DNA from: Alistipes sp.
GTDB lineage: Bacteria; Bacteroidota; Bacteroidia; Bacteroidales; Rikenellaceae
Reading direction: 5' to 3'
Assembly (NCBI GenBank): GCA_017555105.1
Contig: JAFZHB010000019.1
Span: 1-64,000 of the forward strand
DNA: 64,000 nt
How positions within the stretch are numbered: position 1 is the first letter of the stretch; each line of letters opens with the position of its first letter. Shown here in pieces: positions 1 to 64,000 of the stretch. A model generated the notes under the pieces. That model saw only the letters and a program-made list of their open reading frames with translations. It did no database searches and was not told the DNA's origin. Position numbers and translations under genes: made by a program.

Positions 1-18
1 CAAGGCTCTCTTTTTCTG

Positions 19-42
19 TTGAGCGGTAGACGAGGCTCGAAC
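19..42. repeat. Loose copy of the tRNA-Gly 3' end
   Basis: This 24-bp stretch is identical to 180-203, which covers the 3' acceptor arm and most of the T-arm of the adjacent tRNA-Gly gene. The match stops abruptly after the T-loop, so this is a fragment and not a second tRNA. A duplicated tRNA 3' end is the usual footprint of a tyrosine-recombinase element that used the tRNA as its attachment site. Here only 137 bp separate the copies, so any element between them is gone or lies outside the window. Confidence 0.7.
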
Positions 43-150
43 CCACGCTTCGCGTGGATGTTTTTCGCGAACTGTTATTTACACCCCCGACCCCTGGAAG
101 GGGCGATTGAGGGTCGCTCATCGAGCCATTCGACACCCTTATTCAAAGAA

Positions 151-175
151 AAAAGGAGGACATTGTCCTCCTTTT
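151..175 (-). terminator. Terminator of tRNA-Gly
   Basis: This is a perfect 11-bp inverted repeat (151-161 and 165-175) with a 3-nt loop. Its outer pairs are A/T runs, so the minus-strand transcript ends in a U-run. It starts 8 nt past the tRNA 3' end. Confidence 0.85.
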
Positions 176-182
176 CCCTTTG

Positions 183-255
183 AGCGGTAGACGAGGCTCG
201 AACTCGCGACCCTCAGCTTGGGAAGCTAATGCTCTACCGACTGAGCTACTACCGC
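183..255 (-). tRNA. tRNA-Gly (anticodon CCC)
   Basis: On the minus strand the sequence folds as a standard cloverleaf. The acceptor stem is GCGGTAG/CTACCGC, the D-arm GCTC...GAGC, and the anticodon stem TTAGC/GCTGA encloses the loop TTCCCAA. The T-loop is TTCGAGC. The anticodon CCC reads the glycine codon GGG. No CCA is encoded, so it must be added after transcription. It has its own promoter (267-297) and terminator (151-175), so it is an independent unit between the acyl-CoA ligase gene and the window edge. Confidence 0.95.
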
Positions 256-266
256 ATATCGGCCTA

Positions 267-297
267 CAAAGGTAGACCGATTTTTTGAAATCGCAAA
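267..297 (-). promoter_or_regulatory. Bacteroidetes-type promoter of tRNA-Gly
   Basis: On the minus strand TTTG (297-294), a 19-nt spacer and TACCTTTG (274-267) match the Bacteroidetes primary sigma consensus exactly. The predicted start lies a few nucleotides upstream of the tRNA 5' end. The same stretch can form a 10-bp hairpin (about 257-280) that may also end the upstream acyl-CoA ligase transcript. Confidence 0.8.
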
Positions 298-300
298 TCT

Positions 301-2208
301 TTAGCCGAGCAATTTTTTCAGCGAAGCGATATTTTTCTCGCTATCGAGCTTCTTGCCTTCCGGCGTGTAAAGATCATCAATGCGATCCTTGAAGTAGGTC
401 TCAACCTTGTTGCGCACAATCTTCATCGTGCTGTTTACCAGACCATTCTTCTCGGTGAAGGCCTCATCCACGATGGCCAGTGCACCCGGCAACCAGCGGT
501 GCGGGAACTCGTCACCATAGATACCACCCTTGCGGTACTTGTCGATCTCGCCGACGATGAGCTTCGCTGCAGCTGCAGCCTTCTCCTCGTCGGCTACCTC
601 CTTCAGCTCGCGGCGCAATGCATCGCGGTTCGGAACGATCACAGCCGTCGTGTAGGGGCACTGGTTGTTGTAGAGGATGATCTGGTCGATCAGCGGCGAC
701 TTGTCGACAATCGCCTCCTCCATGCCCTCGGGGCTGTACTTCTCACCGTCGCTCGAGATGAGCAGGCTCTTGAAACGGCCCAATACATAGAGGAAGCCGT
801 CCTTGCCCATGTAACCCATATCGCCCGTGTAGAGCCAGCCGTCGCGTACCGTATCGGCACTCGACTCGGGGTTCTTCCAGTAGCCGGCCATCACATTCTC
901 GCCATAGATCACGATCTCACCCTTCTCGCCTACCGGCAGGTCGTTGCCGTCGGCATCCTTGATCTTCAGGTCGATGCCCTTGAGCACCTTACCCGACGAA
1001 CCGAAACGGCAGCACTTGGGCCACGGCGAGTTGGCCGAGATGATCGGCGTAGCCTCCGAGAGGCCATAGCCCTGGAACATCGGAATACCGATGGCGTAGA
1101 AGAAGCGCTGCAGCTCGGCGTCGAGCAGTGCACCACCACCTACGAAGAACTTCAGGCAGCCACCAAAGGCCTCGCGTACCTTCGAGAAGAGGATCTTATC
1201 GAAGAACCATACGGCGGGCTTCAGGATGAAGCGCCAGCCGCGACCCTGCGTATAGGCGTCCTGATTGTAGCAGTAGGCGGTCTTCAACGCGAGCTTGAAG
1301 AGCTTCTCGGTCGTAGCACCCTTGGCGCGGATCGACGACTCGATGTTCTTGCGGAAGTTCTTGGCCAAAGCGGGCACCGAGAGGAGGAAGTGCGGCTTCA
1401 CCTCGCGGATGTTGAGCGGTACATTGCGCAGCGTCTCCATCGGCGTTGCACCCACCTGCGTCGTGGCGACCGTAGCACCGCGCGCGATCATGATATAGAA
1501 ACCTGCAACATGGGCAAAGCAGTGGTCGAGCGGCAGGATGATCAGCGTGCGCCATCCCTCCGGAATCGTGATGCGCGTGAGCGCCTGCTCCACATTCGAG
1601 GTATAGTTGCGGTGGGTCAGCACCACACCCTTCGGGTCAGCGGTCGTACCCGAGGTGTAGGTGATCGTGGCGTAGTCGTCGTTCTGCAGTGCGCGGCTGA
1701 TGGCGAGGAACTCCTCCTTGTGCTCGGGCAACCAGGCACGACCCTGCTCCATGAGCGTCGAGAGCAACATCTCGCCCTCCTGCTCGGGCTGGATCTTATT
1801 GCCGTAGATGATCACCGTCTTCAGCAGCGGCAGACGCTCGCGGATCGAGCGGATCTTGTGGATCTGGGTGGCCGAAACGAAGATGGCTGTTACCTCAGCA
1901 TGCCAGAGGCGGAAGTAGAGGTCGTTGGCCTCCTCCAACTTGATCGAGAGGGGTACGCTGATGCAGCCTGCGTAGAGCAGACCGAGCTCCGAGACAATCC
2001 AATCGTTGCAACCTTCGGCCAGGATCGAGATACGCTCCTTTGGGGCGATACCCATAGCGGCCATACCGGCACCAATCGCCAGTGCCTGCTCATGTGCCTC
2101 CTTGTAGGTCGTAGGCTCAAACTGCGTGGTCTTCTTCTCCAAGAGGAAGGTGTTGTCACCATATTTGGCAACGGACTCCTCAAAGAGATCAATCAAAGTT
2201 TTTTTCAT
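301..2208 (-). CDS. AMP-binding long-chain acyl-CoA ligase
   Basis: This 635-residue protein belongs to the ANL adenylating superfamily. It activates a fatty acid with ATP and loads it onto CoA through an acyl-AMP. The phosphate-binding signature YTSGTTADPKG lies at residues 184-194. Further on are GYGLSEATP and the YTGD motif that contacts the AMP ribose. Length and motifs match the long-chain, FadD/FAA-like branch. It is the last gene of the lepA - ATP-grasp - ligase minus-strand run, 27 nt behind its neighbour. It may feed exogenous fatty acids into lipid synthesis; the exact chain-length preference cannot be read from the sequence. Confidence 0.9.
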   Translation of the reverse strand: MKKTLIDLFEESVAKYGDNTFLLEKKTTQFEPTTYKEAHEQALAIGAGMAAMGIAPKERISILAEGCNDWIVSELGLLYAGCISVPLSIKLEEANDLYFRLWHAEVTAIFVSATQIHKIRSIRERLPLLKTVIIYGNKIQPEQEGEMLLSTLMEQGRAWLPEHKEEFLAISRALQNDDYATITYTSGTTADPKGVVLTHRNYTSNVEQALTRITIPEGWRTLIILPLDHCFAHVAGFYIMIARGATVATTQVGATPMETLRNVPLNIREVKPHFLLSVPALAKNFRKNIESSIRAKGATTEKLFKLALKTAYCYNQDAYTQGRGWRFILKPAVWFFDKILFSKVREAFGGCLKFFVGGGALLDAELQRFFYAIGIPMFQGYGLSEATPIISANSPWPKCCRFGSSGKVLKGIDLKIKDADGNDLPVGEKGEIVIYGENVMAGYWKNPESSADTVRDGWLYTGDMGYMGKDGFLYVLGRFKSLLISSDGEKYSPEGMEEAIVDKSPLIDQIILYNNQCPYTTAVIVPNRDALRRELKEVADEEKAAAAAKLIVGEIDKYRKGGIYGDEFPHRWLPGALAIVDEAFTEKNGLVNSTMKIVRNKVETYFKDRIDDLYTPEGKKLDSEKNIASLKKLLG

Positions 2209-2235
2209 ACGCTTGTTTTAGTGAGTTTTTATAGG

Positions 2236-3147
2236 TTATTTCATCTTTTCAGGAAGTTGTACGCGGTCGCCCAGCTCGCGCAGATACGCCTCCGAGAAGG
2301 AGTCGATGCAGCCGCTGGCGGCCGTGAGGGTCAGCTCGCCGAAATAGGGCTTGCCGCCCACCTCGTAGAGATCGACACGCACCTGCGGAAGCCCTTTCGA
2401 GAGGGCACGCGCCGCCTCCAACATACGGTCGAGCGATGCCGGACGCGGTACAGGCTGCATATCCACCTTGTAGTGGTCGCTAGCAGCAATCCATTCGGGA
2501 TGGGTGTTCCACCCCGTGTCGTAGATGGTCGAATCGACCTTGCGGTGGCCACGGTTGTAATAGACGCGGATGCAGGCGGGCTCACCGTCGAAGCACCAGA
2601 TCTTGTAGTCCACGAGCGTCGAACTCTCGATCGACTGCTGCGTGGCATCGAGCAGCGCCTCGGCAATGACACAGGGTTTGATGGTGGCGTAGTGCGGCTC
2701 GGCCGTGATGTAGCCGTAGCTGCGGCCGTTGCGTAGCAACGAGGCGAAGTGGTGCGTCACCTTGCGGCGGTTGAGTTGCGCCTTGTCGTGGCAGATGACA
2801 ATGTCGCGGCAGCCGTTGTTCGTCTTCATCACGAACTGTTCGGGCAGCGACTCCCAATCGATCATCTCGGCACGCTCCCAACGCCCATAGAGGGGCACGA
2901 GCAGATCGCCGCAGCCGCGCTCCTCGACATAGGAGCGCACAGCCCACTTGTCGGCCAGCTGCGTCCAGAGCGAGGTGTCGGAGTGGAATTTCAGCCACTG
3001 AATCTTCTCGTTCAGATCCTTGGGGTTCTCCCAATCGATCGAACGGCCAAACTTTTTGCGAAAACGGTAGTCGGCAACCTTGCGCGGGTCGTCGCCGTAG
3101 AGCAATTTGTATTTCAGCTTGTGGATCAGTAGGTTCAGCAGGTTCAT
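2236..3147 (-). CDS. TupA-like ATP-grasp protein
   Basis: This 303-residue protein resembles the TupA-like ATP-grasp family, whose members are often found in capsule or teichuronopeptide loci and are presumed to join an amino acid to a sugar acid. The N-terminal KKFGRSIDWENPKDLNEKIQW block and the FVMKTNNGCRD and DYKIWCFDGEP stretches are typical of the family. There is no signal peptide, so it is cytoplasmic. It lies between lepA and the acyl-CoA ligase with gaps of 45 and 27 nt, away from any polysaccharide locus visible here. Its substrate is unknown. Confidence 0.75.
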   Translation of the reverse strand: MNLLNLLIHKLKYKLLYGDDPRKVADYRFRKKFGRSIDWENPKDLNEKIQWLKFHSDTSLWTQLADKWAVRSYVEERGCGDLLVPLYGRWERAEMIDWESLPEQFVMKTNNGCRDIVICHDKAQLNRRKVTHHFASLLRNGRSYGYITAEPHYATIKPCVIAEALLDATQQSIESSTLVDYKIWCFDGEPACIRVYYNRGHRKVDSTIYDTGWNTHPEWIAASDHYKVDMQPVPRPASLDRMLEAARALSKGLPQVRVDLYEVGGKPYFGELTLTAASGCIDSFSEAYLRELGDRVQLPEKMK

Positions 3148-3192
3148 GCGCGCGATGCTTTGGGGTTAGTTTCTTCTCTGGGCTTGCGATGC

Positions 3193-4983
3193 TTAATCCA
3201 TCTTCAGCACGGCAAGGAAGGCCGACTGCGGCACCTCTACATTACCGATCTGGCGCATACGCTTCTTACCCTTCTTCTGCTTCTCCAAGAGCTTACGCTT
3301 ACGCGAGATATCACCACCGTAGCACTTCGCCGTCACATCCTTGCGCACGGCCTTCACCGTCTCGCGGGCAATGATCTTCGCACCAATGGCGGCCTGAATG
3401 GCGATATCGAACTGCTGACGCGGGATCAGCTCCTTGAGCTTCTCGCACATCTTACGGCCAAAGTCATAGGCGTGGTCGGCATAGATGAGCGACGAGAGCG
3501 CATCGACCTGTTCGCCGTTGAGCAGAATATCGAGTTTGACGAGTTTACTGAGCTGGAAGCCCGTGCGGTGGTAGTCGAACGAGGCGTAGCCCTTCGAGAT
3601 CGACTTCAGCTTGTCGTAGAAATCGAAGACGATCTCCGAGAGCGGCATGTCGAAGTTCACCTCCACGCGGTCCTGCGTGATGAAGGTTTGGTTCTGCATC
3701 ACGCCACGCTTGTCGATGCAGAGCTTGATGACATTACCCAGGAAGTCGGCCTTGGTGATGATCTGTGCCTGGATGTAGGGCTCCTCGATCTTGGCGATCT
3801 TTGTCACCTCCGGAAGACCCGAGGGGTTGTGCACCTCGAGCGTCTCGCCCGTGGTGGTGGTGATGCGGTACGACACATTCGGTACGGTCGTGATCACATC
3901 CATGTCGAACTCGCGATAGAGACGCTCCTGGATGATCTCCATATGGAGCAGGCCGAGGAATCCGCAGCGGAAACCGAAGCCAAGTGCCAGCGACGACTCG
4001 GGCTCGAAGGTCAGCGATGCGTCGTTGAGCTGCAGCTTCTCGAGCGAGGCACGCAGGTCCTCATAGCGGTCGGCCTCCACCGGATAGACACCGGCAAACA
4101 CCATCGGTTTCACATCCTCAAAGCCGGCAATACCCTCCTTGCAGGGTTTGGCGATCGAAGTGATCGTATCGCCCACCTTTACATCGGACGAGGTCTTGAT
4201 ACCCGAGCAGATGTAGCCTACATCGCCCGTCTTGATCTCCTGGCGAGGCATCATCTTGAGCTTCAGTACGCCCACCTCGTCGGCGTCGTACTCCGAGCCC
4301 GTGTTGAAGAACTTCACCTGCTCACCCTTGCGGATCGAGCCGTTGAAGACGCGGAAGTAGGCAATGATGCCACGGAAGGGGTTGAATACCGAGTCGAAGA
4401 TCAGCGCCTGCAGCGGTGCCTCAGGATCGCCCTGCGGAGCAGGAATACGCTCGATGATCGCCTCAAGGATCTCCTCCACGCCCAGACCCGTTTTACCCGA
4501 AGCCAACAGGATGTCCTCATCCTTGCAGCCAATCAGGTCGATGATCTGATCCTTCACCTCGTCGATCATGGCCGAATCCATATCGACCTTGTTCAACACG
4601 GGGATAATCTCCAGGTCGTTGCCGACTGCGAGGTAGAGGTTCGAGATTGTCTGCGCCTGAATACCCTGCGAAGCGTCGACTACGAGCAGTGCACCCTCAC
4701 ACGATGCGATGGCGCGAGAAACTTCGTACGAAAAGTCGACATGTCCCGGAGTGTCGATCAGGTTGAGTGTATAGAGCTCGCCGTTGCGAGCCTTGTACTC
4801 CATCTGAATAGCGTGGCTCTTGATGGTGATACCCTTCTCGCGCTCGAGCTCCATGTCGTCGAGTACCTGCGACTGCATTTCGCGCTGGTTCAGCGTATTG
4901 GTCTTCTCGAGCAGGCGATCGGCCAGGGTGCTCTTACCGTGGTCGATGTGGGCGATGATGCAAAAGTTGCGTATGTTTTTCAT
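3193..4983 (-). CDS. lepA: Elongation factor 4 (LepA)
   Basis: This 596-residue translational GTPase is of the usual LepA length. The G1 loop AHIDHGKST is at residues 11-19, followed by the DTPGH G3 motif, NKVD (G4), EF-G-like domains, and the LepA-specific C-terminal domain ending near [19 protein letters not shown]. LepA acts on ribosomes during initiation or under ionic stress. The start chosen is the family-typical [19 protein letters not shown], preceded by a TATATTTG promoter element. It heads the minus-strand run that continues through the ATP-grasp and acyl-CoA ligase genes. Confidence 0.98.
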
Positions 4984-5007
4984 TGAGTTCTCTTATATAT
5001 TCCCGCG

Positions 5008-5015
5008 CAAATATA
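5008..5015 (-). promoter_or_regulatory. -7 element of the lepA promoter
   Basis: TATATTTG on the minus strand lies 25 nt upstream of the lepA start. The upstream box is poor (TTTCG at the expected distance). Confidence 0.5.
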
Positions 5016-5110
5016 CAAAATAAAGTTGAAAAGCGAAATTTCGGGGTGGAGAGTTTTGTGCTGCATGTGTGAAAATTTGGCTTTTTCGGAAGATGCATTC
5101 GAATTTGTTG

Positions 5111-5118
5111 TATCTTTG
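5111..5118 (+). promoter_or_regulatory. -7 element of the lysA promoter
   Basis: TATCTTTG lies 39 nt before the lysA start codon. Only a degenerate TTTCG-like upstream box is visible. Confidence 0.6.
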
Positions 5119-5157
5119 CGCTGTTGTTTCAGCAAAGTTCTAAAAAAACGAATCGAT

Positions 5158-6318
5158 ATGTTAAGCAGACAGGTTGCATCGAAGTTGCGCGGTTATGAAA
5201 CGCCCTTCTACCTCTACGATATGGCACTTTTACGCCAGACGCTCGAGAGTGTGGTCTATGAGTCGAAACGCTACGGCTACCACCTCCACTACGCAATCAA
5301 GGCCAACTACGACGATCGCCTCTTGGAGGTGATCCGCGAGTATGGTCTGGGTATCGACTGCGCCAGCGGCAACGAGCTGCGCAAGGCGATCGAGGCGGGC
5401 TTCGACCCCAAGACGATTGTCTATGCCGGTGTGGGTAAGCGCGATAAGGAGCTGCGCTATGCCATCGAGCAGGAGATTCTGGCCATCAATGTCGAGTCGC
5501 TCGAGGAGCTCTACCTGCTCGATCGTCTCTCGGGTGAGGCGGGCAAGGTGACCGATGTAGCCCTCCGCATCAACCCCGATATCGATCCGAAGACGAACCA
5601 CTGCATCGATACGGGTCAGGCCGACAGTAAGTTCGGTATCTCGTATGAGGAGATCCTCGAAAATGCCGAGGAACTGAAGAAGCTGACGAACCTGAAATTG
5701 ATCGGTATCCACCTCCACATCGGTTCGCAGATCCGTGAGTTGCATGTCTTCGAGAATATGTGCAACAAGGTCAATGTGATCGTAGAGAATATGGAGCGCC
5801 TGGGCTTCAACTTCCGCTTTGTAGATGTTGGCGGTGGTCTGGGTGTGAACTATGATGTGCCTGAGAATGAGCCTATTCCTAACTTTGCTTCGCTCTTCTC
5901 GATCATCCATAACCACCTCTCGGTGGGCGATCGCGAGGTGCACTTCGAGTTCGGTCGAGCCATTGTTGCCGAGTGTGGCGAGCTGATCACCTCGGTGCTC
6001 TTTAATAAGACCACCGCTACGGGTCGCCGTCTGGTGATTGTCGATGCTTCGATGACCGAGCTGATCCGTCCGGCGCTCTATGGCTCGTACCACAACATCG
6101 AGAACATCACCTCCGATGCGGAGCACACCTCGAAGTATACGATCGTGGGCACGGCCTGCGAGTCGACCGATGTCTTCCAGGAGAATGTCAGCCTCAAGAA
6201 GACGAAGCGTGGCGACCTGATCGCCATCAAGTCGGCGGGTGCCTACGGTATGTCGATGGCCTCGCGTTATAACCTGCACGACCTCCCCGGGGCGGTCTAT
6301 AGCGATCAGCTCGAGTAG
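5158..6318 (+). CDS. lysA: Diaminopimelate decarboxylase
   Basis: This 386-residue PLP enzyme decarboxylates meso-diaminopimelate to lysine, the last step of the pathway. The PLP lysine is in YAIKAN (K48). HLHIGSQI, the glycine-rich VDVGGGLGVNYD, and the CESTD substrate motif are all present. An upstream in-frame ATG at 5026 precedes the promoter element, so the start at 5158 is preferred. The EamA-type transporter begins 5 nt after the stop, so the two are probably cotranscribed. This raises the possibility that the transporter handles lysine or a related amino acid. Confidence 0.96.
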   Translation: MLSRQVASKLRGYETPFYLYDMALLRQTLESVVYESKRYGYHLHYAIKANYDDRLLEVIREYGLGIDCASGNELRKAIEAGFDPKTIVYAGVGKRDKELRYAIEQEILAINVESLEELYLLDRLSGEAGKVTDVALRINPDIDPKTNHCIDTGQADSKFGISYEEILENAEELKKLTNLKLIGIHLHIGSQIRELHVFENMCNKVNVIVENMERLGFNFRFVDVGGGLGVNYDVPENEPIPNFASLFSIIHNHLSVGDREVHFEFGRAIVAECGELITSVLFNKTTATGRRLVIVDASMTELIRPALYGSYHNIENITSDAEHTSKYTIVGTACESTDVFQENVSLKKTKRGDLIAIKSAGAYGMSMASRYNLHDLPGAVYSDQLE

Positions 6319-6323
6319 CGCCT

Positions 6324-11876: not shown

Positions 11877-14342
11877 ATGAACATCTCTTATAACTGGCTC
11901 AAACGCTATCTGAAAACCGATCTGCCTGCCGAGCAGATTGCGAAAATTCTGACCGATATCGGCTTGGAGGTCGAGGGTTTCGAGAAGATCGAGACCATCA
12001 AGGGCGGCCTTGCAGGTGTCGTGGTGGCCGAGGTGCTGACCTGTGAGGATCATCCCGACTCGGACCACCTCCACATCACGAAGGTCGATGTGGGTAGCGG
12101 CGAGCCCCTGCAGATTGTCTGCGGTGCGCCGAACTGCCGTCAGGGCCTCAAGGTGCTCTGCGCTACGGTGGGCACGACCCTCTATCCCAACGGTGGCGAT
12201 GAGGAGTTTAAGATCAAGCGCTCGAAGATTCGCGGCGTGGAGTCGCTCGGTATGCTTTGTGCCGAGGATGAGCTGGGCATTGGTGAGTCGCACGACGGCA
12301 TTATGGAGCTCCCGGCCGAGGCCCAGGTGGGTATGACGGCCAAGGAGTACCTCCACATCGAGGATGACTACCTGATCGCCATCGGTTTGACGCCGAACCG
12401 TGTGGATGCCGCTTCGCACATCGGTGTGGCACGCGACCTGGCAGCCTACCTGAAGGTGAACAACTACGCTGTGGAGTATGAGCTCCCGTCGGTGGAGGCC
12501 TTTGCGGTTGATAACCACGACCTGCCGATCCGTGTCTCGGTGGAGAATAGCGAGGCTGCGCCGCGCTATGCGGGTGTCTCGGTCAAGGGGTGCAAGATCG
12601 GCCCTTCGCCCGAGTGGATGCAGAACTGCCTGCGTGCTGCGGGCATCAACCCGAAAAACAACCTGGTCGATATCACGAACTTTGTACTCTTCGAGCTGGG
12701 TCAGCCCCTGCACGCTTTCGATGCCGATAAGATCGAGGGCGGCCAGATCGTAGTGCGTACCTGCGAGGAGGGAACTCCCTTCGTGACGCTCGACGGTGTG
12801 GAGCGCAAGCTGACGAAGAACGATCTGATGATCTGCTCGGCCGAGCGTCCGATGTGTATCGCCGGTGTCTTTGGTGGTCTGGACTCGGGTGTGAGCGATA
12901 CGACGACCAATGTCTTCCTCGAGAGCGCCTACTTCAACCCCGTTTGGGTGCGCAAGACGGCCAAGCGTTTTGGCCTGAATACCGACTCGTCGTTCCGCTT
13001 CGAGCGCGGTATCGACCCCAATATGCAGCTCTATGCCGTGAAGCGTGCAGCTCTGCTGATGAAGGAGCTCGCCGGTGGTGAGATCGCCAGCGAGATCATC
13101 GACATCTGCCCCACTCCGGCCGAGGATTTCCGTTTCACGCTCTCGTTCAAGCGCGTGAACCAGCTTATCGGTAAGGAGATTCCCGAGGAGACCGTGCGTG
13201 CCATTTTGGCCGCTCTGGAGGTGAAGATCGAGGCCGAGGAGAACGGCGTGCTGAGCGTGGCTGTTCCCCCCTACCGCGTCGATGTACAGCGCGAGGCCGA
13301 CCTGATTGAGGATATCCTCCGCATCTATGGTTACAACAATGTGGAAATCCCCTCGCGTGTGCGTTCGACGCTCTCCTATGCAGCGCGTCCCGACCGCACG
13401 AAGCTGATGAACCTGGCGGCTGACTTCCTGACTGCCGGCGGCTATACGGAGATCATGTCCAACTCGCTGACGAAGGCTGCCTACTACGAGGGCTTGGAGA
13501 GCTACAAGGCCGAGCACTGCGTGAAGATCATGAATCCGCTGAGTGCCGACCTGAATGTGATGCGTCAGACGCTGCTCTTCAATATGTTGGAGGCGATGAA
13601 TCTGAACATCAACCACAAGAACGGCGACCTGAAACTCTATGAGTTCGGTAACTGCTACTTCTACGACGCCGAGAAGTGCAACGAGGAGAACCACCTGGCT
13701 GCCTACAGCGAGGAGTATCGCCTGGCGATCGGTGTGACGGGTGTCGCTACGCCCCAGTCGTGGGACTCGAAGCCGCAGAAGGCCTCCTTCTTTACGCTGC
13801 GTGCCATGGTCGAGAAGCTGCTGCGCCGCTTTGGCCTGAATATCTACCAGCTGAAGACGGAGTCGGTGAAGAACGATCTCTTTGGCGAGGCACTGGAGCT
13901 GCAGCTCAACGGCAAGCCGCTGGCTACGATCGGCGTGGTGAGCGCCAAGATCCGCAAGCAGTTCGATGTGAAGCAGGATGTCTATTTCCTGGAGATGAAC
14001 TTCGACCTGTTGGTGAAGTCGACCAAGAAGCACCGCATTCAGGTCGAGGAGCTCTCGAAGTTCCCCGAGGTGAAGCGCGACCTGGCACTCTTGGTGGATC
14101 AGTCGGTAAGCTTCTCGGCACTGCGTGAGGTGGCGCTGGCTACCGAGCGTAAGCTGCTGAAGCGTGTTTCGCTCTTCGATGTCTACGAGGGTGATAAGCT
14201 CCCTGCAGGTAAGAAGTCCTACGCCTTGAGCTTCATCCTGGAGGATAAGAGCCGCACGCTCGATGAGAAGACCATCGAGCGCGTGATGCAGAACCTGCAG
14301 CGTCAGTTTGAGCAGAAGTGCGGTGCACAGGTACGCGCATAA
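11877..14342 (+). CDS. pheT: Phenylalanine-tRNA ligase beta subunit
   Basis: This 821-residue subunit of the (alpha-beta)2 PheRS starts at MNISYNWLKRYLKTDL. An upstream ATG at 11841 lies within the promoter and is rejected. It has the OB-fold tRNA-binding domain near residues 40-150, the B3/B4 editing domain, B5, the inactive core-like domain, and the C-terminal anticodon-binding FDX-ACB domain starting near ELSKFPEVKRDLALLVD. The alpha-subunit gene pheS is not adjacent. It is divergent from the attenuated trpB2 gene. A 104-nt imperfect palindrome follows the stop. Confidence 0.97.
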   Translation: MNISYNWLKRYLKTDLPAEQIAKILTDIGLEVEGFEKIETIKGGLAGVVVAEVLTCEDHPDSDHLHITKVDVGSGEPLQIVCGAPNCRQGLKVLCATVGTTLYPNGGDEEFKIKRSKIRGVESLGMLCAEDELGIGESHDGIMELPAEAQVGMTAKEYLHIEDDYLIAIGLTPNRVDAASHIGVARDLAAYLKVNNYAVEYELPSVEAFAVDNHDLPIRVSVENSEAAPRYAGVSVKGCKIGPSPEWMQNCLRAAGINPKNNLVDITNFVLFELGQPLHAFDADKIEGGQIVVRTCEEGTPFVTLDGVERKLTKNDLMICSAERPMCIAGVFGGLDSGVSDTTTNVFLESAYFNPVWVRKTAKRFGLNTDSSFRFERGIDPNMQLYAVKRAALLMKELAGGEIASEIIDICPTPAEDFRFTLSFKRVNQLIGKEIPEETVRAILAALEVKIEAEENGVLSVAVPPYRVDVQREADLIEDILRIYGYNNVEIPSRVRSTLSYAARPDRTKLMNLAADFLTAGGYTEIMSNSLTKAAYYEGLESYKAEHCVKIMNPLSADLNVMRQTLLFNMLEAMNLNINHKNGDLKLYEFGNCYFYDAEKCNEENHLAAYSEEYRLAIGVTGVATPQSWDSKPQKASFFTLRAMVEKLLRRFGLNIYQLKTESVKNDLFGEALELQLNGKPLATIGVVSAKIRKQFDVKQDVYFLEMNFDLLVKSTKKHRIQVEELSKFPEVKRDLALLVDQSVSFSALREVALATERKLLKRVSLFDVYEGDKLPAGKKSYALSFILEDKSRTLDEKTIERVMQNLQRQFEQKCGAQVRA

Positions 14343-54620: not shown

Positions 54621-54632
54621 ACAACTGTAAAT

Positions 54633-57374: not shown

Positions 57375-57382
57375 CAAAGGTA
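57375..57382 (-). promoter_or_regulatory. -7 element of the glyA promoter
   Basis: TACCTTTG on the minus strand, 30 nt before glyA. The facing fhs gene has only a degenerate TACCTTCG (57406-57413) at a comparable place. Confidence 0.5.
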
Positions 57383-57458
57383 CGCTTTCTTTTCAAGAAA
57401 AATGTTTACCTTCGTAGCAAATTATCGACAAAATATCAGAAGAAATAACTTTCAATCT

Positions 57459-59126
57459 ATGAAATCAGATATCGAAATTGCTCGCAGCATCGAGCTTGTG
57501 AAGATCAAGGAGCTGGCAAAATCGTTCAATATGCCAGAGGATTATGTGACCCACTACGGCCGCCACATGGCCAAGGTGGATATTTCGCTCATCGACGAGG
57601 AGAGGGTGAAGAACGGTAACCTGATTCTGGTGACGGCCATCACCCCGACCAAGGCCGGTATCGGCAAGACGACCGTGTCGGTAGGTCTGGCGCTGGGTAT
57701 GAACAAGATCGGCAAGAAGGCTTTTTTGGCGCTTCGTGAGCCCTCGCTGGGCCCCTGCTTCGGCATGAAGGGCGGTGCGGCAGGTGGCGGTTATGCCCAG
57801 GTGCTGCCGATGGAGAAGATCAACCTGCACTTTACGGGTGACTTCCACGCCATCACCTCGGCCAACAACATGATCTCGGCCCTGCTCGACAACTACATCT
57901 ACCAGAACCGCGACAACGGCTTTGGCCTGAAGGAGATCCTCTGGCGTCGCGTGCTGGATGTCAACGACCGCTCGCTCCGCTACATCGTGACGGGTCTGGG
58001 TCCGAAGACCAACGGCGTCACGCAGGAGGCAGGCTTCGACATTACGCCCGCTTCGGAGATTATGGCGATCCTCTGCCTGGCGAAGGATGAGGATGACCTG
58101 CGTCGTCGCATCGAGAACATCCTCCTGGGCTACACCTACGACAACAAGCCCTTCACGGTGAAGGATCTGGGCGTGGCCGGTGCGATTGTGGTGCTGCTGA
58201 AGGATGCCCTCTCGCCCAACCTGGTGCAGACGACCGAGCATACGCCTGCCTTTGTGCACGGCGGTCCGTTTGCCAACATTGCCCACGGATGTAACTCGGT
58301 GCTGGCCACGAAGCTGGCGATGACCTATGGCGAGTATGCCATCACGGAGGCGGGCTTTGGCGCTGATCTGGGTGCAGAGAAGTTCTACGACATCAAGTGC
58401 CGCAAGGCGGGCTTGAACCCGAAGCTCACGGTGCTGGTCGTAACGGCGCGTGCCCTGAAGATGCACGGCGGTGTGGCGCAGGATATGGTGGGTCAGCCCA
58501 ACCTGGAGGCTCTGAAGGTGGGTATTGCGAATATGGAGAAGCACCTCGAGAACCTGGCCAAGTTCGGTCAGACGGCTGTGGTGGCCTTCAACCGCTATGG
58601 CGACGATGTGCAGGAGGAGATCGACTATGTACGCGAGCACTGCGCCAAGATGGGCATCGGTTTTGCAGTCAACAACGCCTTCGTGGAGGGCGGTGCAGGT
58701 GCTGTGGAGTTGGCCGAGCTGGTCGTGAAGACGATCGAGGAGAAGCCCTCTGCGGAGCTGAACTTCGCCTATGCCGACGAGGACGATGTGCCGACGAAGA
58801 TCGGCAAGGTGGCTGCCGACATCTACGGTGCTAAGCAGGTGACCTTCAGCGCTACGGCCAAGAAGAAGTTGGCCATGATCGAGGAGCTGGGCTATGCGCA
58901 CTTCCCGATCTGTATTGCCAAGACGCAGTACAGCTTCTCGACCAACCCGAAGCTGATCAATGCGCCGAAGGGGTTCGATTTCCAGGTGCAGGACATCGTG
59001 ATCAATGCCGGTGCGGAGATGCTGGTGGTCATCTCGGGCGAGATTATGCGTATGCCGGGCTTGCCCAAGCAGCCGCAGGCGCTGCATATCGACATCGTGA
59101 ATGGCGAGATCGAGGGCTTGTCGTAG
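57459..59126 (+). CDS. fhs: Formate-tetrahydrofolate ligase
   Basis: This 555-residue enzyme, the family length, starts [20 protein letters not shown]. An in-frame longer reading through the glyA gene is rejected. The P-loop lies in [11 protein letters not shown], followed by [23 protein letters not shown] and [14 protein letters not shown]. It makes 10-formyl-THF from formate, ATP and THF. Paired with glyA across a shared gap, it supplies one-carbon units for purine synthesis in a fermentative anaerobe. Confidence 0.97.
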
Positions 59127-59162
59127 GCCATTGATCGACCCACTCAATAACAACTAAACGCT

Positions 59163-60062
59163 ATGAAACGACTCTTTACGCTCCTGCTCTCCGTCGTGGC
59201 GCTGTATGCGGCGCAGGCACAGGAGATCGTGCTCCCCTCCGAGCCCGTTGCACTTCCGGCCATTGATGCCCGCGCGTTGGGTATGGGCGGCGTGGCGATG
59301 GCCTCGGCGTCGGGTGCGCATACGCTCTATGACAATGCGGCGATGACCGCCTTTGCGACCTATCCGGCCAAGTTCTCGACCTCCTACTACGGGCAGACCG
59401 ACTTCGACTACTATGCCCTCTCGGGCTATCTGCGCCTGGGTAGAGGCCATGTGGTGCAGGCGGGTTGGCGACAGTACCTGCGCGAAAAGGGAAACCACGA
59501 TTCGGCCATCGACCTGGGCTACTCGCTCCGCTTGGGCGAGCAGTGGTCGGTAGGTGTGGTGGGTCGCTACCTCGATCTGAAGCGCTACGACGAGCGTGCC
59601 TCGGCCCTGGCCTTCGATCTCTCGGCCGCTTGGCAGCGGGGGTTGGAGTCGCTGGGTGAGTATGCGCTCCTGCGCGTGGGTGCGAAGGTGGAGAATCTGG
59701 GCGGCTTCTTCGAGGATGCCCCCTATACCCTGCCGGTGAGCCTCAAGGCGGGTGCGGCACTCGAGACCTACTTCTCGGAGTTGCATCAGCTAACCGTGGG
59801 TGTGGATGCGGGTTACTGCTTCAACCCCTCGGCCGTGCGTGGCTTTCAGGCCGCAGTGGGTGCAGAATATACCCTGATGCAGTTGATTCGTCTGCGTGCG
59901 GGTTACCACCTGGGCGAAAAGGGGGGCTACAACCCCTCCTACGGCTCGGTCGGTGCAGGCGTCACGCTGCTCCATCTGCGCGTGGACTTCGCCTATCTCT
60001 TGGCCGAAAAGAACTCGTGGCTCAGAAACACCTACAGCATCAGTTTTGGGTTGGATTTTTAG
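59163..60062 (+). CDS. PorV/PorQ-like outer-membrane protein
   Basis: This 299-residue protein has the signal peptide MKRLFTLLLSVVALYAAQAQ. The mature N-terminus has ALPAIDARALGMGGVAMASASGAHTLYDNAA, which is the hallmark of the PorV/PorQ (FadL-like) family with its SARA/LGMG region. The rest is a beta-barrel ending with an aromatic strand YSISFGLDF. PorV and PorQ assist the type IX secretion system in some Bacteroidetes; no other Por genes are nearby. It is monocistronic with a terminator. Confidence 0.8.
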   Translation: MKRLFTLLLSVVALYAAQAQEIVLPSEPVALPAIDARALGMGGVAMASASGAHTLYDNAAMTAFATYPAKFSTSYYGQTDFDYYALSGYLRLGRGHVVQAGWRQYLREKGNHDSAIDLGYSLRLGEQWSVGVVGRYLDLKRYDERASALAFDLSAAWQRGLESLGEYALLRVGAKVENLGGFFEDAPYTLPVSLKAGAALETYFSELHQLTVGVDAGYCFNPSAVRGFQAAVGAEYTLMQLIRLRAGYHLGEKGGYNPSYGSVGAGVTLLHLRVDFAYLLAEKNSWLRNTYSISFGLDF

Positions 60063-60083
60063 GAAGAGCGATTAGAGACAACG

Positions 60084-60121
60084 AAGGGCGATTAAGGTTT
60101 TTACTCCTTAGTCGCCCTTAG
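60084..60121. terminator. Hairpin terminator between the PorV-like and phosphatase genes
   Basis: Fourteen-bp stem with one G-U pair (60084-60097 / 60106-60119) and an 8-nt T-rich loop. It lies between two convergent genes and could serve both. Confidence 0.75.
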
Positions 60122-60143
60122 CGTTTCTGAATGGCTATCTCTT

Positions 60144-60617
60144 CTACGCCTGCTCGGTCAGCTCCTCCAGCAGTCGTTCGCAGGCCTCCTCCAAGAGGTC
60201 GAGCACAATCTCAAAACCCTCGTGCCCCTCGTAGTAGGGATCGGGTACATAGCTGTAGTGGGTCTGGCCGAAGAACTCGCGCATGCGGTAGATCTTCTCG
60301 CCGTCGGCACGCGAAGGAGCCAGGCGGTGCACCGTCTCGTAGTTGTAGTCGTCCATCACGATGATGCGGTCGAAGCGCTCGAAGTCGGCGCTGCGGATCG
60401 GTCGGGCGTGGTGGGTCAGCTCGTAGCCACGCGCAGCAGCGGCACGACGCATACGCGGATCGGCCAGTTCGCCGGCGTGACCCGAATAGGTGCCGGCCGA
60501 GTCGGTCGTGATCCGATCAGTAAGCCCTCTGCGGGCAACCAGGGTGCGGAAGATCTCCTCGGCTGCCGGGGAGCGACAGATGTTACCGAGGCATACGAAA
60601 AGGATGCGCTGTTTCAT
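60144..60617 (-). CDS. Low-molecular-weight protein-tyrosine phosphatase
   Basis: This 157-residue phosphatase has the P-loop CLGNICRS at residues 9-16 (C9 nucleophile, R15) and the general acid Asp in DPYYEG. It removes phosphate from tyrosines in proteins, often autokinases of polysaccharide export. No such kinase is in this window. It is divergent from the YtfJ-like gene. Confidence 0.95.
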   Translation of the reverse strand: MKQRILFVCLGNICRSPAAEEIFRTLVARRGLTDRITTDSAGTYSGHAGELADPRMRRAAAARGYELTHHARPIRSADFERFDRIIVMDDYNYETVHRLAPSRADGEKIYRMREFFGQTHYSYVPDPYYEGHEGFEIVLDLLEEACERLLEELTEQA

Positions 60618-60736
60618 AGGGACAAAGGTAGTGAAAAAGCCTCAAATCGGCAAATTCGCCTCGTTTGGTCGCTCTTTGTGCCGATTTGGGAGAAAACAAA
60701 TCCCCTCGACACTACCCCATTTCCCGAAAAAAAGGC

Positions 60737-60744
60737 TATCTTTG
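60737..60744 (+). promoter_or_regulatory. -7 element of the YtfJ-like operon
   Basis: TATCTTTG, 26 nt before the start codon. Confidence 0.55.
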
Positions 60745-60770
60745 CACCGTTATTTATACAAATAAAAGCG

Positions 60771-61283
60771 ATGATGAAACAGTGGAGTTTGCTGGCTGCA
60801 CTCCTGCTCGTTTGCGGGGTGGCCACGGCGCAAGAGCAGATGCATAAGGTGGAGAATGTGGTTCTGAAGGGGCTCGACGGGTCGCAGTGCTCGTTGCCGA
60901 TGTTTGGCGAGAAGAACCTGATCATCTTCTATGTCGATCCCGACCGCCACAAGCAGAACGAGGCCTTCACCTACGAGATGGAGGAGCACCATCTGGCCGA
61001 GGGCGAGGAGATCGTCGGCTTTGGTGTGCTGAACCTCAAGGACTCGATGCTGCCGAATGTGCTGGTGCGCACGATTGCCCGTAAACGCACCGAGAAGAAC
61101 GGTGCTACGGTGCTGGTCGATGACAATCGCACGCTCTCGACGGCGTGGGGCTTGGGCGACTGCAACAACCTCTTTACGCTGATCCTCGTCTCGAAGGAGG
61201 GTGAGATCTCCTTCCTCGGGAAGGGCGAACTGACCGAGGAGCAGCAGAAGGCCTTCTACAAGGCGCTGGATCAATACCGATAA
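60771..61283 (+). CDS. YtfJ-like thioredoxin-fold periplasmic protein
   Basis: This 170-residue protein has the signal peptide MMKQWSLLAALLLVCGVATAQ. The mature part starts with KVENVVLKGLDGSQCSLPMFGEKNLIIFYVDPDRHKQN, which matches the YtfJ/thioredoxin-like layout: a nucleotide-like loop YVDPD, but no CxxC redox pair. It includes LVDDNRTLSTAWGLGDCNNLFTLILVSKEGEISFLGKG. The role in the envelope is unknown. It is followed after 3 nt by the BamA-type barrel gene, suggesting a joint role at the outer membrane. Confidence 0.7.
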   Translation: MMKQWSLLAALLLVCGVATAQEQMHKVENVVLKGLDGSQCSLPMFGEKNLIIFYVDPDRHKQNEAFTYEMEEHHLAEGEEIVGFGVLNLKDSMLPNVLVRTIARKRTEKNGATVLVDDNRTLSTAWGLGDCNNLFTLILVSKEGEISFLGKGELTEEQQKAFYKALDQYR

Positions 61284-61286
61284 GCG

Positions 61287-62441
61287 ATGCGCTGCAGGCG
61301 GTGGCTGTTGGTGGCCGGATTGCTCCTCGTGGTGGGCGCAGGACGAGCCGAGGGGCTCGATTCGTTGTCGCAGAGTCCGCGTAAGGGGCTCGTGAGGCGT
61401 GTGGTCGATTACTTCGGTCAGTCGACCGTGGATCGCACGGCAGAGCGTGCTATCGACTTCACCTTTGCCGGCGGACCCAGCTACTCGAAGACAACCGAGC
61501 TGGGCTTGGGTCTTCTCGGGTCGGGGCTCTACCGCCTCGATCGGCAGGACAGCGTGACCCCTCCCTCCGATATCTCCTTCTACGGTACGATCTCCACGAC
61601 GGGCTTCTACTCGTTGGGAGCTACCGGAAACACCATCTTCCGCGACCGCAACCGTCGCCTCTCCTACGAGCTCTCGTTCACCTCTTCGCCGCGTGACCTC
61701 TGGGGCATAGGCTATCAGGCGGGGCGCACGAACCCTCCGACCAAGATCCTCGAGCAGCGATATGCCCTCGAGGTGCAGTTCCGTCAGCGCATCGTGGCCG
61801 ACGCCTACCTGGGTGCGCTCATCGACCTGGATTACCGCCGAGGACGCGACTTTGACGCAACGGCCGACGCCTACATCCACCACCAACGCCGCGAGTACCT
61901 CGCTACGGGCGTGGGTCTGCTGGCCGAGTACGATACGCGCGACTTTATTCCGAACCCCTCGCGGGGCGTTTACCTCGCCCTGCAACAGATCCTCTACGCA
62001 CGGGGGCTGGGCAACTGCTCGGACTCCTTCTGGCGTACGATCTTTACGGCCGACTACTACCGGCAGGTGTGGCGCGGAGGCGTGTTGGCCTTCGATCTCT
62101 ACGGAGAGTTGAACACGAAGGGCACGCCCTGGACCATGCTGGCACGCCTCGGTGGCAGTGCCCGTATGCGCGGCTACTACGAGGGGCAATATGCCGACCG
62201 CAACCTGGTGGTGGGTCAGGTCGAGCTGCGCCAACACCTCTGGCGACGCTTTGGTGGCGTCGTGTGGGGCGGTGCGGGTAATGTCTTTCCGCGCATGAGT
62301 AGCTTCCGCTGGGCGGAGACGCTCCCCAACTACGGTTTGGGTCTGCGCTGGGAGCTGAAAAAGCGGGTGAATGTCCGCATGGATTACGGCTTCGGTCGGG
62401 CGACGAGCGGTTTCCTGCTCTCGATCAACGAGGCCTTTTAA
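61287..62441 (+). CDS. BamA/TamA-type surface antigen barrel
   Basis: This 384-residue protein has an N-terminal signal (MRCRRWLLVAGLLLVVGAGRAE) and a beta-barrel of the bacterial surface antigen (D15/Omp85) type. Strands such as YGTISTTGFYSLGATGNTIF, ALEVQFRQRIVADAYLGALI and the loop RLGGSARMRGYYEGQYADRN (the conserved VRGF/Y lock region) support this. There are no POTRA domains, so it is a short Omp85-like barrel. It is part of the three-gene run from 60771, 3 nt after the YtfJ-like gene. Confidence 0.8.
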   Translation: MRCRRWLLVAGLLLVVGAGRAEGLDSLSQSPRKGLVRRVVDYFGQSTVDRTAERAIDFTFAGGPSYSKTTELGLGLLGSGLYRLDRQDSVTPPSDISFYGTISTTGFYSLGATGNTIFRDRNRRLSYELSFTSSPRDLWGIGYQAGRTNPPTKILEQRYALEVQFRQRIVADAYLGALIDLDYRRGRDFDATADAYIHHQRREYLATGVGLLAEYDTRDFIPNPSRGVYLALQQILYARGLGNCSDSFWRTIFTADYYRQVWRGGVLAFDLYGELNTKGTPWTMLARLGGSARMRGYYEGQYADRNLVVGQVELRQHLWRRFGGVVWGGAGNVFPRMSSFRWAETLPNYGLGLRWELKKRVNVRMDYGFGRATSGFLLSINEAF

Positions 62442-62452
62442 CGACGAAAACA

Positions 62453-64000
62453 ATGAAGCATCAACTTCGTAACCTCCGACAACGCTTGTGGAGAAGCCGC
62501 AGCCGCCTCACGCCGCTGCTGGCGCTCTATTTCGTGCTGTCGCTCATCCTGCCGAACTGTGTGCTGACGATCACCGAGAGCTACTCCCTCTGGTCGAAGG
62601 AGGCGGGGATCCTCCTGCCGCTGGGCTTCTACCTGATGTGGAGCGTGGCGCTGCGGCGCTCGGGTGTGATGATCTGGCTCGGCTTCCCGTTCATCTTCTT
62701 TGCCGCCTTCCAGCTCGTGCTGCTTTACCTCTTTGGCGACTCGATCATTGCGCCCGATATGTTCACGAATGTCGTCACGACCAACCCGAACGAGGCAGGC
62801 GAACTCCTGGCCAACATCTACCCCGCCGTGGTGGGGGTCGGGGTGGTCTACCTGCCGATGCTCTGGCTCGCCTGGCGTGAGATTGCCCATCGTCACCTCC
62901 TCTCGTCGAAGGCGCGTGCCACGATTGGATTGACGGGTGCAGCGCTCTTTCTCTTGGGCTTGCTGCTGCTGTGGCCTGCCTCGCGGGTGCGCGAGGAGCG
63001 GCACATCCTGCGCGACGAGATCTTCCCGATCAATGTCGCCTACAATGTCTATCTGAGTGCTACGGAGCTGCGCAAGACGCTCCACTACGAGGAGCTGACG
63101 GCCGACTTCCGATTCGATGCCCACCGCACGGCTCAGAGCGCGGGACGCGAGCTCTATGTCTATGTCATTGGCGAGGCTTCGCGTGCGATGAGCTGGTCGC
63201 TCTACGGCTATGAGCGGGAGACTACGCCCCGCCTGGCGGAGGTGGAGGAGCTGGTGCTCTACCGCAATGTGCTCACGCAGAGCAACACCACGCATAAGAG
63301 TGTGCCGATGATGCTCTCGTCGGTTCATCCCGCACACCACGAGGCGATCTACCACCGCAAGGGGTTGCTGGCGCTCTTCTCGGAGGCGGGATTTGAGAGT
63401 TGGTTCATCTCGAACCAGCTGCCCCAGGGGGCGATGATCGACAACCTGGCCTCGGAGGCCGACCACCTGCGCTACCTCGATGCGCCGCGTCACGACGAAC
63501 AGCTTGTGGAGGCTCTGAAGGCGGTGGTGGCCGAGAGCACGGCCGAGAAGCTGATGGTGGTGCTCCACTGCTACGGCTCGCACTTCAGCTACTTCCAGCG
63601 CTACCCGCGCGACTACGCCCACTACCTCCCCGAGGGGGATGTGGCGATCCACCCGCAGCACTACGAGGAGCTGCGCAACACCTACGACAACTCGATCCGC
63701 TACACGGACAGCGTGTTGGCCGACCTGATTGATTACCTCCGTAGCCAAGCGGAGATCACCTCGGCGCTGCTCTACTGCTCGGATCACGGCGAGGACCTCT
63801 TCGACGACGAGCGAGGTCGCTTCCTCCACGCCTCCCCCACCACGACGGCCTATCAGCTCCATGTGGCCTCGCTGGCCTGGTTCTCGGAGCGCTATCGGGA
63901 GGCTTTCCCGGCGAAGGTGGAGGCTGCCGCAAACAACGCCCAAAAGCCCGCTACGACGCGTGCAATGTACCACACGATGGCCGACCTGGCCTCGATCGAG
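62453..64000 (+). CDS. Phosphoethanolamine transferase (partial)
   Basis: The frame runs from an ATG 11 nt after the barrel gene to the window edge (516 codons, no stop), so the 3' end is missing. The N-terminus has several transmembrane helices (LLALYFVLSLILPN, FPFIFFAAFQLVLLYLFG, LTGAALFLLGLLLLWPASRV). A sulfatase-fold domain then begins near LYVYVIGEASRAMSWSLYGY, with the nucleophile-bearing SNTTHKSVPMMLS and the metal site SDHGEDL. EptA-type enzymes add phosphoethanolamine to lipid A and lower its charge, which gives resistance to cationic peptides. The barrel and YtfJ-like genes share the run. Confidence 0.88.
   Translation, partial: MKHQLRNLRQRLWRSRSRLTPLLALYFVLSLILPNCVLTITESYSLWSKEAGILLPLGFYLMWSVALRRSGVMIWLGFPFIFFAAFQLVLLYLFGDSIIAPDMFTNVVTTNPNEAGELLANIYPAVVGVGVVYLPMLWLAWREIAHRHLLSSKARATIGLTGAALFLLGLLLLWPASRVREERHILRDEIFPINVAYNVYLSATELRKTLHYEELTADFRFDAHRTAQSAGRELYVYVIGEASRAMSWSLYGYERETTPRLAEVEELVLYRNVLTQSNTTHKSVPMMLSSVHPAHHEAIYHRKGLLALFSEAGFESWFISNQLPQGAMIDNLASEADHLRYLDAPRHDEQLVEALKAVVAESTAEKLMVVLHCYGSHFSYFQRYPRDYAHYLPEGDVAIHPQHYEELRNTYDNSIRYTDSVLADLIDYLRSQAEITSALLYCSDHGEDLFDDERGRFLHASPTTTAYQLHVASLAWFSERYREAFPAKVEAAANNAQKPATTRAMYHTMADLASIE

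What the first reader, a model, noticed from the sequence alone, without database searches (positions are those of the whole stretch)
1..64000. ACGT appears to be absent from the whole window
Seen: checking the base before each CGT across the window, I found no ACGT (nor GACGTC, CACGTG or similar). With about 57% G+C a few hundred would be expected by chance. The avoidance works at the codon level. Asp-Val is always GAT-GTN, Asn-Val AAT-GTN and Tyr-Val TAT-GTN, and Thr ACG is common but gives way to ACC or ACT before T. Other palindromes such as GATC, TCGA, GTAC and AGCT are frequent. Known: long-term selection by restriction enzymes or DNA-cutting systems depletes short palindromes, but seldom to zero. 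Inference: the lineage lives with a nuclease, modification or mutational process aimed at ACGT, encoded outside this window and possibly not described. The AT-richer LRR segment also lacks ACGT, so it has been exposed for long.
Basis: partly seen in the sequence, partly recalled or inferred. Interest (0 to 1): 0.9.

Follow-up and report, generated by a model that had tools for sequence, protein, structure and literature searches.

The report
ACGT purged from gut bacterium's genome
A bacterium related to the gut genus Alistipes has lost nearly every copy of the four-letter DNA word ACGT, and comparison with its relatives and with large phages points to restriction enzymes (DNA-cutting defences) that make such words costly, a known effect seen here in an unusually strong and fast-changing form.

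Summary
It holds genome-wide: 159 against 5,319 in 1.77 Mb, in all codon frames and in intergenic gaps. Of 294 ACGT in aligned genes of the nearest relative held, 10 survive; control words survive at 31-64%. Lost sites leave by synonymous routes, and ACG|T never became ACA|T (0 of 75), so selection against the site fits better than deamination. The trait is patchy: 23 of 60 chosen genomes are nearly ACGT-free. Relatives lack other palindromes, such as GATC, CATG, CCGG, GGCC and AGCT. One C5 methyltransferase group, beside varying nuclease-like genes, was found in 4 of 180 genomes of the genus, all ACGT-poor. A phage carrying that methyltransferase keeps about half its ACGT but lacks GATC and CCGG; a related phage, without it in the 21 kb read, lacks ACGT too. 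Best explanation: avoidance of an ACGT-specific Type II restriction-modification system. None was found in the window's own, 86% complete genome. The kind is known; strength, stacking of words and speed of loss stand out.

The parts
1..64000 (.). ACGT-free stretch (a property of the whole window; part of an 86,560-base contig with no ACGT)
11877..14342 (+). pheT (phenylalanyl-tRNA synthetase beta chain, named by reading the translation), used as marker to fetch 80 named relatives and to place 41 of them on a tree

Best explanation
The missing ACGT is restriction-site avoidance. A Type II restriction-modification system that cuts unmethylated ACGT acts, or acted recently, on this lineage. Each ACGT left in the genome is a liability whenever methylation is incomplete, the system is lost, or the DNA enters a cell that carries the system, so variants without the site win. 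In coding DNA the site is removed by whichever synonymous change suits codon usage. Nearly the whole chromosome has been cleared, apart from likely recent imports and some highly expressed genes. The candidate system, seen in four other species of the genus, is a C5 cytosine methyltransferase (here 'cluster A') with an adjacent nuclease-like gene. Shown: depletion, its pattern, its patchiness, the association with cluster A, and the contrast between two phages. Inferred: that cluster A methylates ACGT, that its neighbour cuts there, and that this or a like system acted on the window's own lineage.
For: Genome-wide 159 of 5,319. All codon frames and intergenic gaps under 600 bp (11 of 175). Codon alignment to 277 kb of the nearest relative G049 (132 genes, 141 kb aligned): 10 of 294 ACGT kept, nine control words kept at 31-64%; exits ACG|T (75) to ACC|T 26, ACG|C 16, ACA|T 0; NNA|CGT (101) to GCGC 22, ACGC 22, GCGT 16. 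In 72 of 80 relatives' loci (8 kb or more; expectation at least 12), words under a quarter of expectation are palindromes, with one exception (CTAA, one locus), in species-specific sets: GATC 21 loci, CATG 15, CCGG 10, ACGT 7, GGCC 7, AGCT 5. At least 5 changes of the ACGT state on a tree of 42 rows. In the clearest of 11 pairs compared, L157 and L167 (90.6% identical), GCGC is 0 against 20 with none shared, while ACGT is 28 against 27 with 16 shared. Cluster A methyltransferase in 4 of 180 genomes of the genus, all four nearly ACGT-free; the neighbouring HNH-like gene in 3 of 180, among the same genomes. Phage A with cluster A methyltransferase: ACGT 22 of 50, GATC 0 of 59, CCGG 0 of 31; related phage B without it in the 21 kb read: ACGT 1 of 85, CCGG 2 of 89, and AGCT, CATG, GATC, GGCC all 0. 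Only 2 of 44 phage loci of this search, phage B included, avoid ACGT.
Against: No cluster A methyltransferase (best 34-39% identity) and no cluster A nuclease in the own genome; its only DNA methyltransferases found are a tandem C5 pair on contig C1 with a different target-recognition region. The genome is 86% complete and not all methyltransferase families were searched by model, so absence is weak evidence. Of the 23 ACGT-poor genomes, 19 (the own one included) show no cluster A. In 26 relatives I count 57 avoided palindromes against 42 match rows in three methyltransferase families, and four genomes with three or four avoided words have no match. tuf keeps 11 sites, as many as expected. In blastn alignments to five relatives, 53 of 133 lost ACGT (40%) were C>T/G>A, against 61 of 195 changed ACGA (31%) and 54 of 260 changed TCGT (21%), which leaves room for a deamination contribution. 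The two phages' hosts are unknown; phage A is itself at about half of expectation (its TCGA likewise, 34 of 68), and of two phages with a 50% identical methyltransferase one is low in ACGT (1 of 10, L318) and one less so (9 of 15, L319).
Confidence: 0.82

Rival explanations
1. Mutational loss: ACGT is methylated to A-m5C-GT and deaminates to ATGT or ACAT, as proposed for Helicobacter pylori.
For: H. pylori precedent (PMC10423294, passages). In the codon alignment 28.5% of changed sites are C>T/G>A, at the top of the range of nine control words (3% in CCGG, 10-29% in the others); in blastn alignments to five relatives 53 of 133, against 31% for ACGA and 21% for TCGT. NAC|GTN sites go mostly to NAT|GTN (79 of 118), which is, however, the only synonymous exit at that codon.
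Against: Where the product ACA|T is synonymous it was reached in 0 of 75 cases and is not enriched (0.53 of expectation in own, 0.55 in G049). The frame where deamination would change the protein (NNA|CGT) is almost as empty as the others (23 of 599). Relatives avoid GATC, CATG and AGCT in the same way, and these contain no CG.
Confidence: 0.06
2. The selecting agent is not in the cell: site-bearing DNA is cut when it passes to community members with ACGT restriction, so transfer and recombination favour site-free alleles, and the population is cleared by biased exchange.
For: The own genome and most ACGT-poor genomes show no cluster A system; avoided words outnumber methyltransferase matches; loss can outrun neutral turnover; phage B lacks the six words most often avoided by the bacteria apart from CTAG, and CTAG too.
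Against: Draft genomes lose accessory islands; recombination was not measured; gain and loss of resident systems explains the same data and is documented elsewhere (PMC4687349, passages).
Confidence: 0.2
3. RNA-level selection, for example an ACGU-cutting toxin (mRNA interferase).
For: The word is missing from genes.
Against: Intergenic gaps are depleted too (11 of 175), though part of them is transcribed; the depleted words in relatives are almost all DNA palindromes, several per genome.
Confidence: 0.02
4. Artefact of assembly, library or binning.
For: The genome is a draft in 22 contigs and most relatives are metagenome-assembled.
Against: Other metagenome-assembled relatives keep ACGT; depletion follows codon synonymy; some genes and an island within the same contigs keep ACGT.
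Confidence: 0.01

Closest known systems
Avoidance of orthodox Type II restriction sites in prokaryotic genomes (Rusinov et al. 2015, PMC4687349; passages seen, start of the abstract)
   Same: Short palindromes depleted, lineage by lineage, also in genomes without the cognate system (argued there to be traces of lost systems).
   Different: There under-representation is called at Kr below 0.78; here the ratio is 0.03 (a different statistic), several palindromes are near zero in one genome, and loss is visible between relatives 91% identical.
ACGT under-representation in Helicobacter pylori with M.Hpy99XI (PMC10423294; passages seen)
   Same: Same word, similar density (around 53 ACGT per Mb in hpEastAsia; 90 per Mb here), C5 methyltransferase as agent or candidate.
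   Different: There change is heavily skewed to ATGT/ACAT; here exits follow the synonymous options and ACA|T is not used.
Type II restriction enzymes for ACGT (MaeII, HpyCH4IV, TaiI; recalled, not from a call)
   Same: Same recognition word.
   Different: No sequence of theirs was compared; the nuclease-like gene beside cluster A matches no Pfam or NCBIfam family above cut-off and no solved structure by sequence.

Membership tests
Type II restriction-site avoidance | A palindrome depleted far below what composition and codon usage predict | tested here: met
   0 of 190 in window; 159 of 5,319 in genome; synonymous shuffles, all frames
Type II restriction-site avoidance | Acts on DNA, coding and non-coding | tested here: met
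   Intergenic gaps under 600 bp: 11 of 175
Type II restriction-site avoidance | Lineage-specific and recently changed | tested here: met
Type II restriction-site avoidance | Cognate methyltransferase and nuclease in the same genome | tested here: inconclusive
   No fitting pair in the 86% complete own genome; families such as PF02384 and PF07669 were not searched
Type II restriction-site avoidance | Methylation and cutting at ACGT | not testable with these tools
   Needs long-read kinetics, bisulphite sequencing or an enzyme assay
Deamination-driven motif loss (H. pylori ACGT) | Lost sites become mainly ATGT or ACAT | tested here: not met
   28.5% of 284 changed sites; 0 of 75 ACG|T became ACA|T; 53 of 133 in blastn alignments to five relatives
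Cluster A as an ACGT-specific Type II system | C5 cytosine methyltransferase | tested here: met
   PF00145 3.2e-72 and PADLOC MTase_II for the G100 member; members 71-93% identical
Cluster A as an ACGT-specific Type II system | Adjacent restriction nuclease | tested here: inconclusive
   205-240 aa gene with HNH/zinc-like residues read by eye; Pfam HNH only E 0.14 in one member; the G092 copy is cut short by a stop; unrelated neighbours in G100 and G430
Cluster A as an ACGT-specific Type II system | Carriers avoid ACGT | tested here: met
   4 of 4 carriers in the genus (ratio 0.006-0.011); order-mate G430 0.045, but its family-mate G033 is also low (0.096)

The most novel reading that the evidence does not exclude
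In Rikenellaceae of ruminant hindguts, restriction acts as a community-wide drive: a small shared set of four-base palindromes (GATC, CATG, CCGG, ACGT, GGCC, AGCT) is policed by fast-moving Type II systems, and genomes, not only phages, are cleared of these words faster than neutral change because only site-free DNA survives exchange. Jumbo phages of the same community answer either by avoiding the whole set or by carrying a matching methyltransferase.
Probability: 0.2. Interest if true: 0.75.

Novelty: new member of a known kind. Interest (0 to 1): 0.55.

Why it matters
Restriction avoidance is usually a mild statistical bias. Here it is nearly complete, changes between close relatives and stacks up word by word. 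That makes this clade a natural laboratory for two open questions: why cells that are supposedly protected by methylation still purge their own sites, and whether restriction drives genome evolution through DNA exchange. The missing words may also predict which enzymes protect or bar DNA in these mostly uncultured bacteria, useful for transformation and for phage-host matching.

Tried and rejected
Tandem C5 methyltransferases and 500-aa nuclease (PADLOC REase_II 1e-109) on contig C1 as the agent: their target-recognition region differs from cluster A, the nuclease occurs in 1 of 180 genomes, and the island is AT-rich and still holds ACGT (6 of 22), so it looks recently acquired. Its specificity is unknown, so it is made unlikely, not excluded.

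CGACGT as proxy for ACGT: misleading in some genomes (G139, G108, G161 are low in CGACGT but not in ACGT), so a neutral pattern was used for the census.

C5 methyltransferase cluster B (G003, G171, G139, G016, G089): shared with genomes that keep ACGT, so unlikely to be the ACGT enzyme. The clustering covered the proteins of loci that had been cut out (34 tried; 3 gave no protein, and the row meant for the own first methyltransferase repeated the second); a fragment in ACGT-poor G109 was checked later and is not cluster A (35%).

Codon selection in highly expressed genes as the reason for residual sites: the top 4% by codon adaptation keep 38 of 305, the rest 91 of 4,891, but tuf lies at a contig end and may be chimeric; left open.

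More jumbo phages through a guanylyltransferase-like gene: apart from phage A itself at most about 56% identical, so not used to test carriage of the methyltransferase, only as control.

Paper searches: searches returned no papers; one search listed 10 of 13 and 6 of 6, none of which is about site avoidance in this clade or in rumen phages by title and abstract start. Searches gave the papers cited and unrelated ones.
Full report
Observation. ACGT occurs 0 times in the window (expected 190 by Markov model; 220 by shuffles). I took stretches covering 1,768,506 of 1,769,299 bases of the own draft genome (22 contigs, 86.17% complete; stretches). ACGT: 159 observed, 5,319 expected, the lowest ratio of 256 tetramers; next is CTAG, 207 of 2,935. 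The window's contig C17 (86,560 bases) has none; at the genome's own residual rate about five or six were expected in the window, so it is a fortunate stretch of a genome-wide trait.

Where the remaining sites are. They cluster: tuf at the end of contig C21 (11 in 1,029 bases, as many as expected), the ribosomal protein/fusA region of C16 (11 of 75), outer-membrane carbohydrate-uptake genes on C16 (9 of 58) and C20 (6 of 22), and an AT-rich defence island on C1 (6 of 22). The names of the tuf, ribosomal and uptake genes are my reading of their translations. The top 4% of genes by codon adaptation (reference: the ribosomal region) hold 38 of 305 expected, the rest 91 of 4,891. Imports and strongly codon-selected genes are the likely reasons (inference); assembly chimerism at conserved genes such as tuf is not excluded.

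Selection rather than mutation. In 1,247 genes with synonymous codons shuffled, the frames ACG|T, NAC|GTN and NNA|CGT stand at 27 of 2,178, 76 of 2,422 and 23 of 599. Intergenic gaps under 600 bp stand at 11 of 175. I aligned 132 genes (141 kb, 79% identity) by codon to 277 kb of the nearest relative held (G049, the genome of L104, about 2.2 Mb): of 294 aligned ACGT, 10 are kept in the own genome (3.4%), while nine control words with CG are kept at 31-64%. ACG|T sites (75) became ACC|T 26, ACG|C 16, ACT|T 4 and ACA|T 0. NNA|CGT sites (101) became GCGC 22, ACGC 22 and GCGT 16. NAC|GTN sites (118) became ATGT 79, the only synonymous exit at that codon. ACA|T stands at 0.53 of expectation in the own genome and 0.55 in G049, so it is not enriched. 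Deamination of A-m5C-GT, the explanation given for H. pylori (PMC10423294, passages), predicts ACA|T and should spare NNA|CGT; neither is seen. Against this: in blastn alignments to five relatives without codon frames, 53 of 133 lost sites were C>T/G>A, more than for ACGA (61 of 195) or TCGT (54 of 260); the forced exit NAC|GTN to NAT|GTN accounts for at least part of that, and a minor deamination share is not excluded.

A family-wide pattern. From 80 named relatives fetched through pheT, 72 loci of 8 kb or more were scored. Words under a quarter of expectation (expectation at least 12) are palindromes, with one exception (CTAA in one locus). CTAG is low in 58 loci; GATC in 21, CATG 15, CCGG 10, ACGT 7, GGCC 7, AGCT 5, CGCG 2, GCGC 1. 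Several words can be missing at once (L148: ACGT 0 of 29, CCGG 1 of 29, GATC 3 of 68, CATG 5 of 53, AGCT 10 of 44). On a tree of the own pheT and 41 relatives that I picked from the 80 (a 42nd was dropped for a stop in the frame taken) the ACGT state needs at least 5 changes, GATC 9, CATG 9 (quick method, three long end branches flagged). In the clearest of 11 pairs compared, L157 and L167, 90.6% identical over 9,966 aligned bases, have GCGC 0 against 20, CATG 0 against 10 and GGCC 2 against 11, none shared, while ACGT is 28 against 27 with 16 shared and AGCT 50 against 43 with 29 shared. In that pair avoided words vanished faster than other words turned over.

Census. CGACGT counts in 180 genomes of the genus gave candidates. 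A neutral pattern (ACGT plus four spaced purines, control read backwards) was then counted in 60 genomes, chosen and not random: 23 of 60 have a ratio of 0.041 or less (own 17 against 1,193), all in the genus. Five that were low in CGACGT were not that low in ACGT (G099 0.07, G165 0.28, G108 0.41, G139 0.41, G161 0.58).

Looking for the enzyme. The own genome has, by family search and motif scan, one tandem pair of C5 methyltransferases and no match to PF01555 or PF02086; other methyltransferase families were not searched by model. The pair sits in the C1 island with a 500-aa PADLOC REase_II protein, a TIR-domain gene, a DGQHR/DndB-like gene, an HNH gene and a Fic gene. PF00145 rings in 58 of 180 genomes. 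One group, cluster A (G091, G092, G147, G100; 71-93% identical), was found only in genomes nearly free of ACGT. Taking 23 such genomes among 180, four of four has a chance of about 2 in 10,000 (my arithmetic; relatedness ignored). The four genes lie in different surroundings. Three have a divergent neighbour of 205-240 aa with HNH-like cysteine and histidine residues, read by eye, found in 3 of 180 genomes, the G092 copy cut short by a stop; G100 has another neighbour of 282 aa. An order-mate of another family, G430, has the methyltransferase at 67% identity (1 of 393 genomes at E 1e-80), a third kind of neighbour (264 aa, PD-(D/E)XK-like by eye) and a low ACGT ratio (0.045; its family-mate G033 0.096). 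The own genome has neither gene.

The phage contrast. A 339-kb viral contig (phage A) carries a cluster A methyltransferase (63-66% identical) and no relative of the two neighbouring gene types in the pieces read. It keeps ACGT at 22 of 50 and 33 of 61 in overlapping 21-kb pieces (TCGA is also at about half: 34 of 68, 43 of 80), but has GATC 0 of 59 and 0 of 60, CCGG 0 of 31 and 0 of 34, AGCT 4 of 35 and 2 of 40. A related 388-kb contig (phage B; query protein 75% identical), with a different C5 methyltransferase in the piece read, has ACGT 1 of 85, AGCT 0 of 55, CATG 0 of 96, CCGG 2 of 89, CTAG 0 of 21, GATC 0 of 50, GGCC 0 of 73, and TCGA, GTAC, GCGC and TGCA at 0.8 or more. In 44 phage loci, which include pieces of both, ACGT is avoided in 2 (phage B and L406). 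Phage B lacks the six words most often avoided by the bacteria apart from CTAG; phage A spares the one word that its methyltransferase would cover. That is the best independent hint at the specificity of cluster A. It rests on about 21 kb of phage B and 33 kb of phage A; hosts are unknown. Two phages with a 50% identical enzyme give no clear answer (ACGT 1 of 10 in L318, 9 of 15 in L319).

What is not explained. Of the 23 ACGT-poor genomes 19, the own one included, show no cluster A. In 26 relatives I count 57 avoided palindromes (CTAG left out) against 42 match rows in three methyltransferase families (16, 11, 15; fragments and double hits counted). G041, G047, G063 and G065 avoid three or four words and show none. 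Incomplete drafts, other enzyme families, lost systems, or restriction outside the cell could each account for this. Rusinov et al. found avoidance without the system in many genomes and argue that it is mostly a trace of lost systems (PMC4687349, passages).

Verdict. Restriction-site avoidance, with an ACGT-specific Type II system as agent, is well supported. The identity of that system in this lineage is open. The kind is known. The strength, the stacking of words and the speed of loss are unusual, and the paper searches made here found no report of it in this clade.

Noticed in passing
window 1-64000; genome contigs: CTAG is also almost missing (9 of 103 in window, 207 of 2,935 in genome), as in most relatives (58 of 72 loci); no cause was sought.
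   Followed up: no
own genome contig C1 (L032), contig positions 85282-96272: AT-rich defence island: tandem C5 methyltransferases, 500-aa REase_II found in 1 of 180 genomes, TIR-domain gene beside a PADLOC candidate (PDC-S42), DGQHR/DndB-like gene, HNH gene, Fic gene, HTH regulator.
   Followed up: partly
own genome contig C21:1-1029 (L028): tuf (named by reading) keeps 11 ACGT, the full expectation, in a genome that has otherwise lost 97%; it lies at a contig end.
   Followed up: partly
own genome and G049: GGNCC is low after synonymous shuffling (0.33 in own genes, 0.47 in aligned genes of G049), perhaps another avoided word shared by the pair.
   Followed up: no
L398 (IMGVR_UViG_3300031998_000001, 388 kb): Jumbo phage piece lacking seven four-base palindromes at once (ACGT, AGCT, CATG, CCGG, CTAG, GATC, GGCC).
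   Followed up: partly
L127 (Alistipes sp. Marseille-P5061), L107, L402, L403, L407: Near-total GATC loss in an Alistipes strain (1 of 103) and a relative (9 of 121), and in several phage loci (0 of 42, 0 of 68, 0 of 71).
   Followed up: no
L154 (genome G139), G108, G161: CGACGT nearly absent although ACGT is not; perhaps avoidance of CGWCG (my inference, not counted).
   Followed up: no
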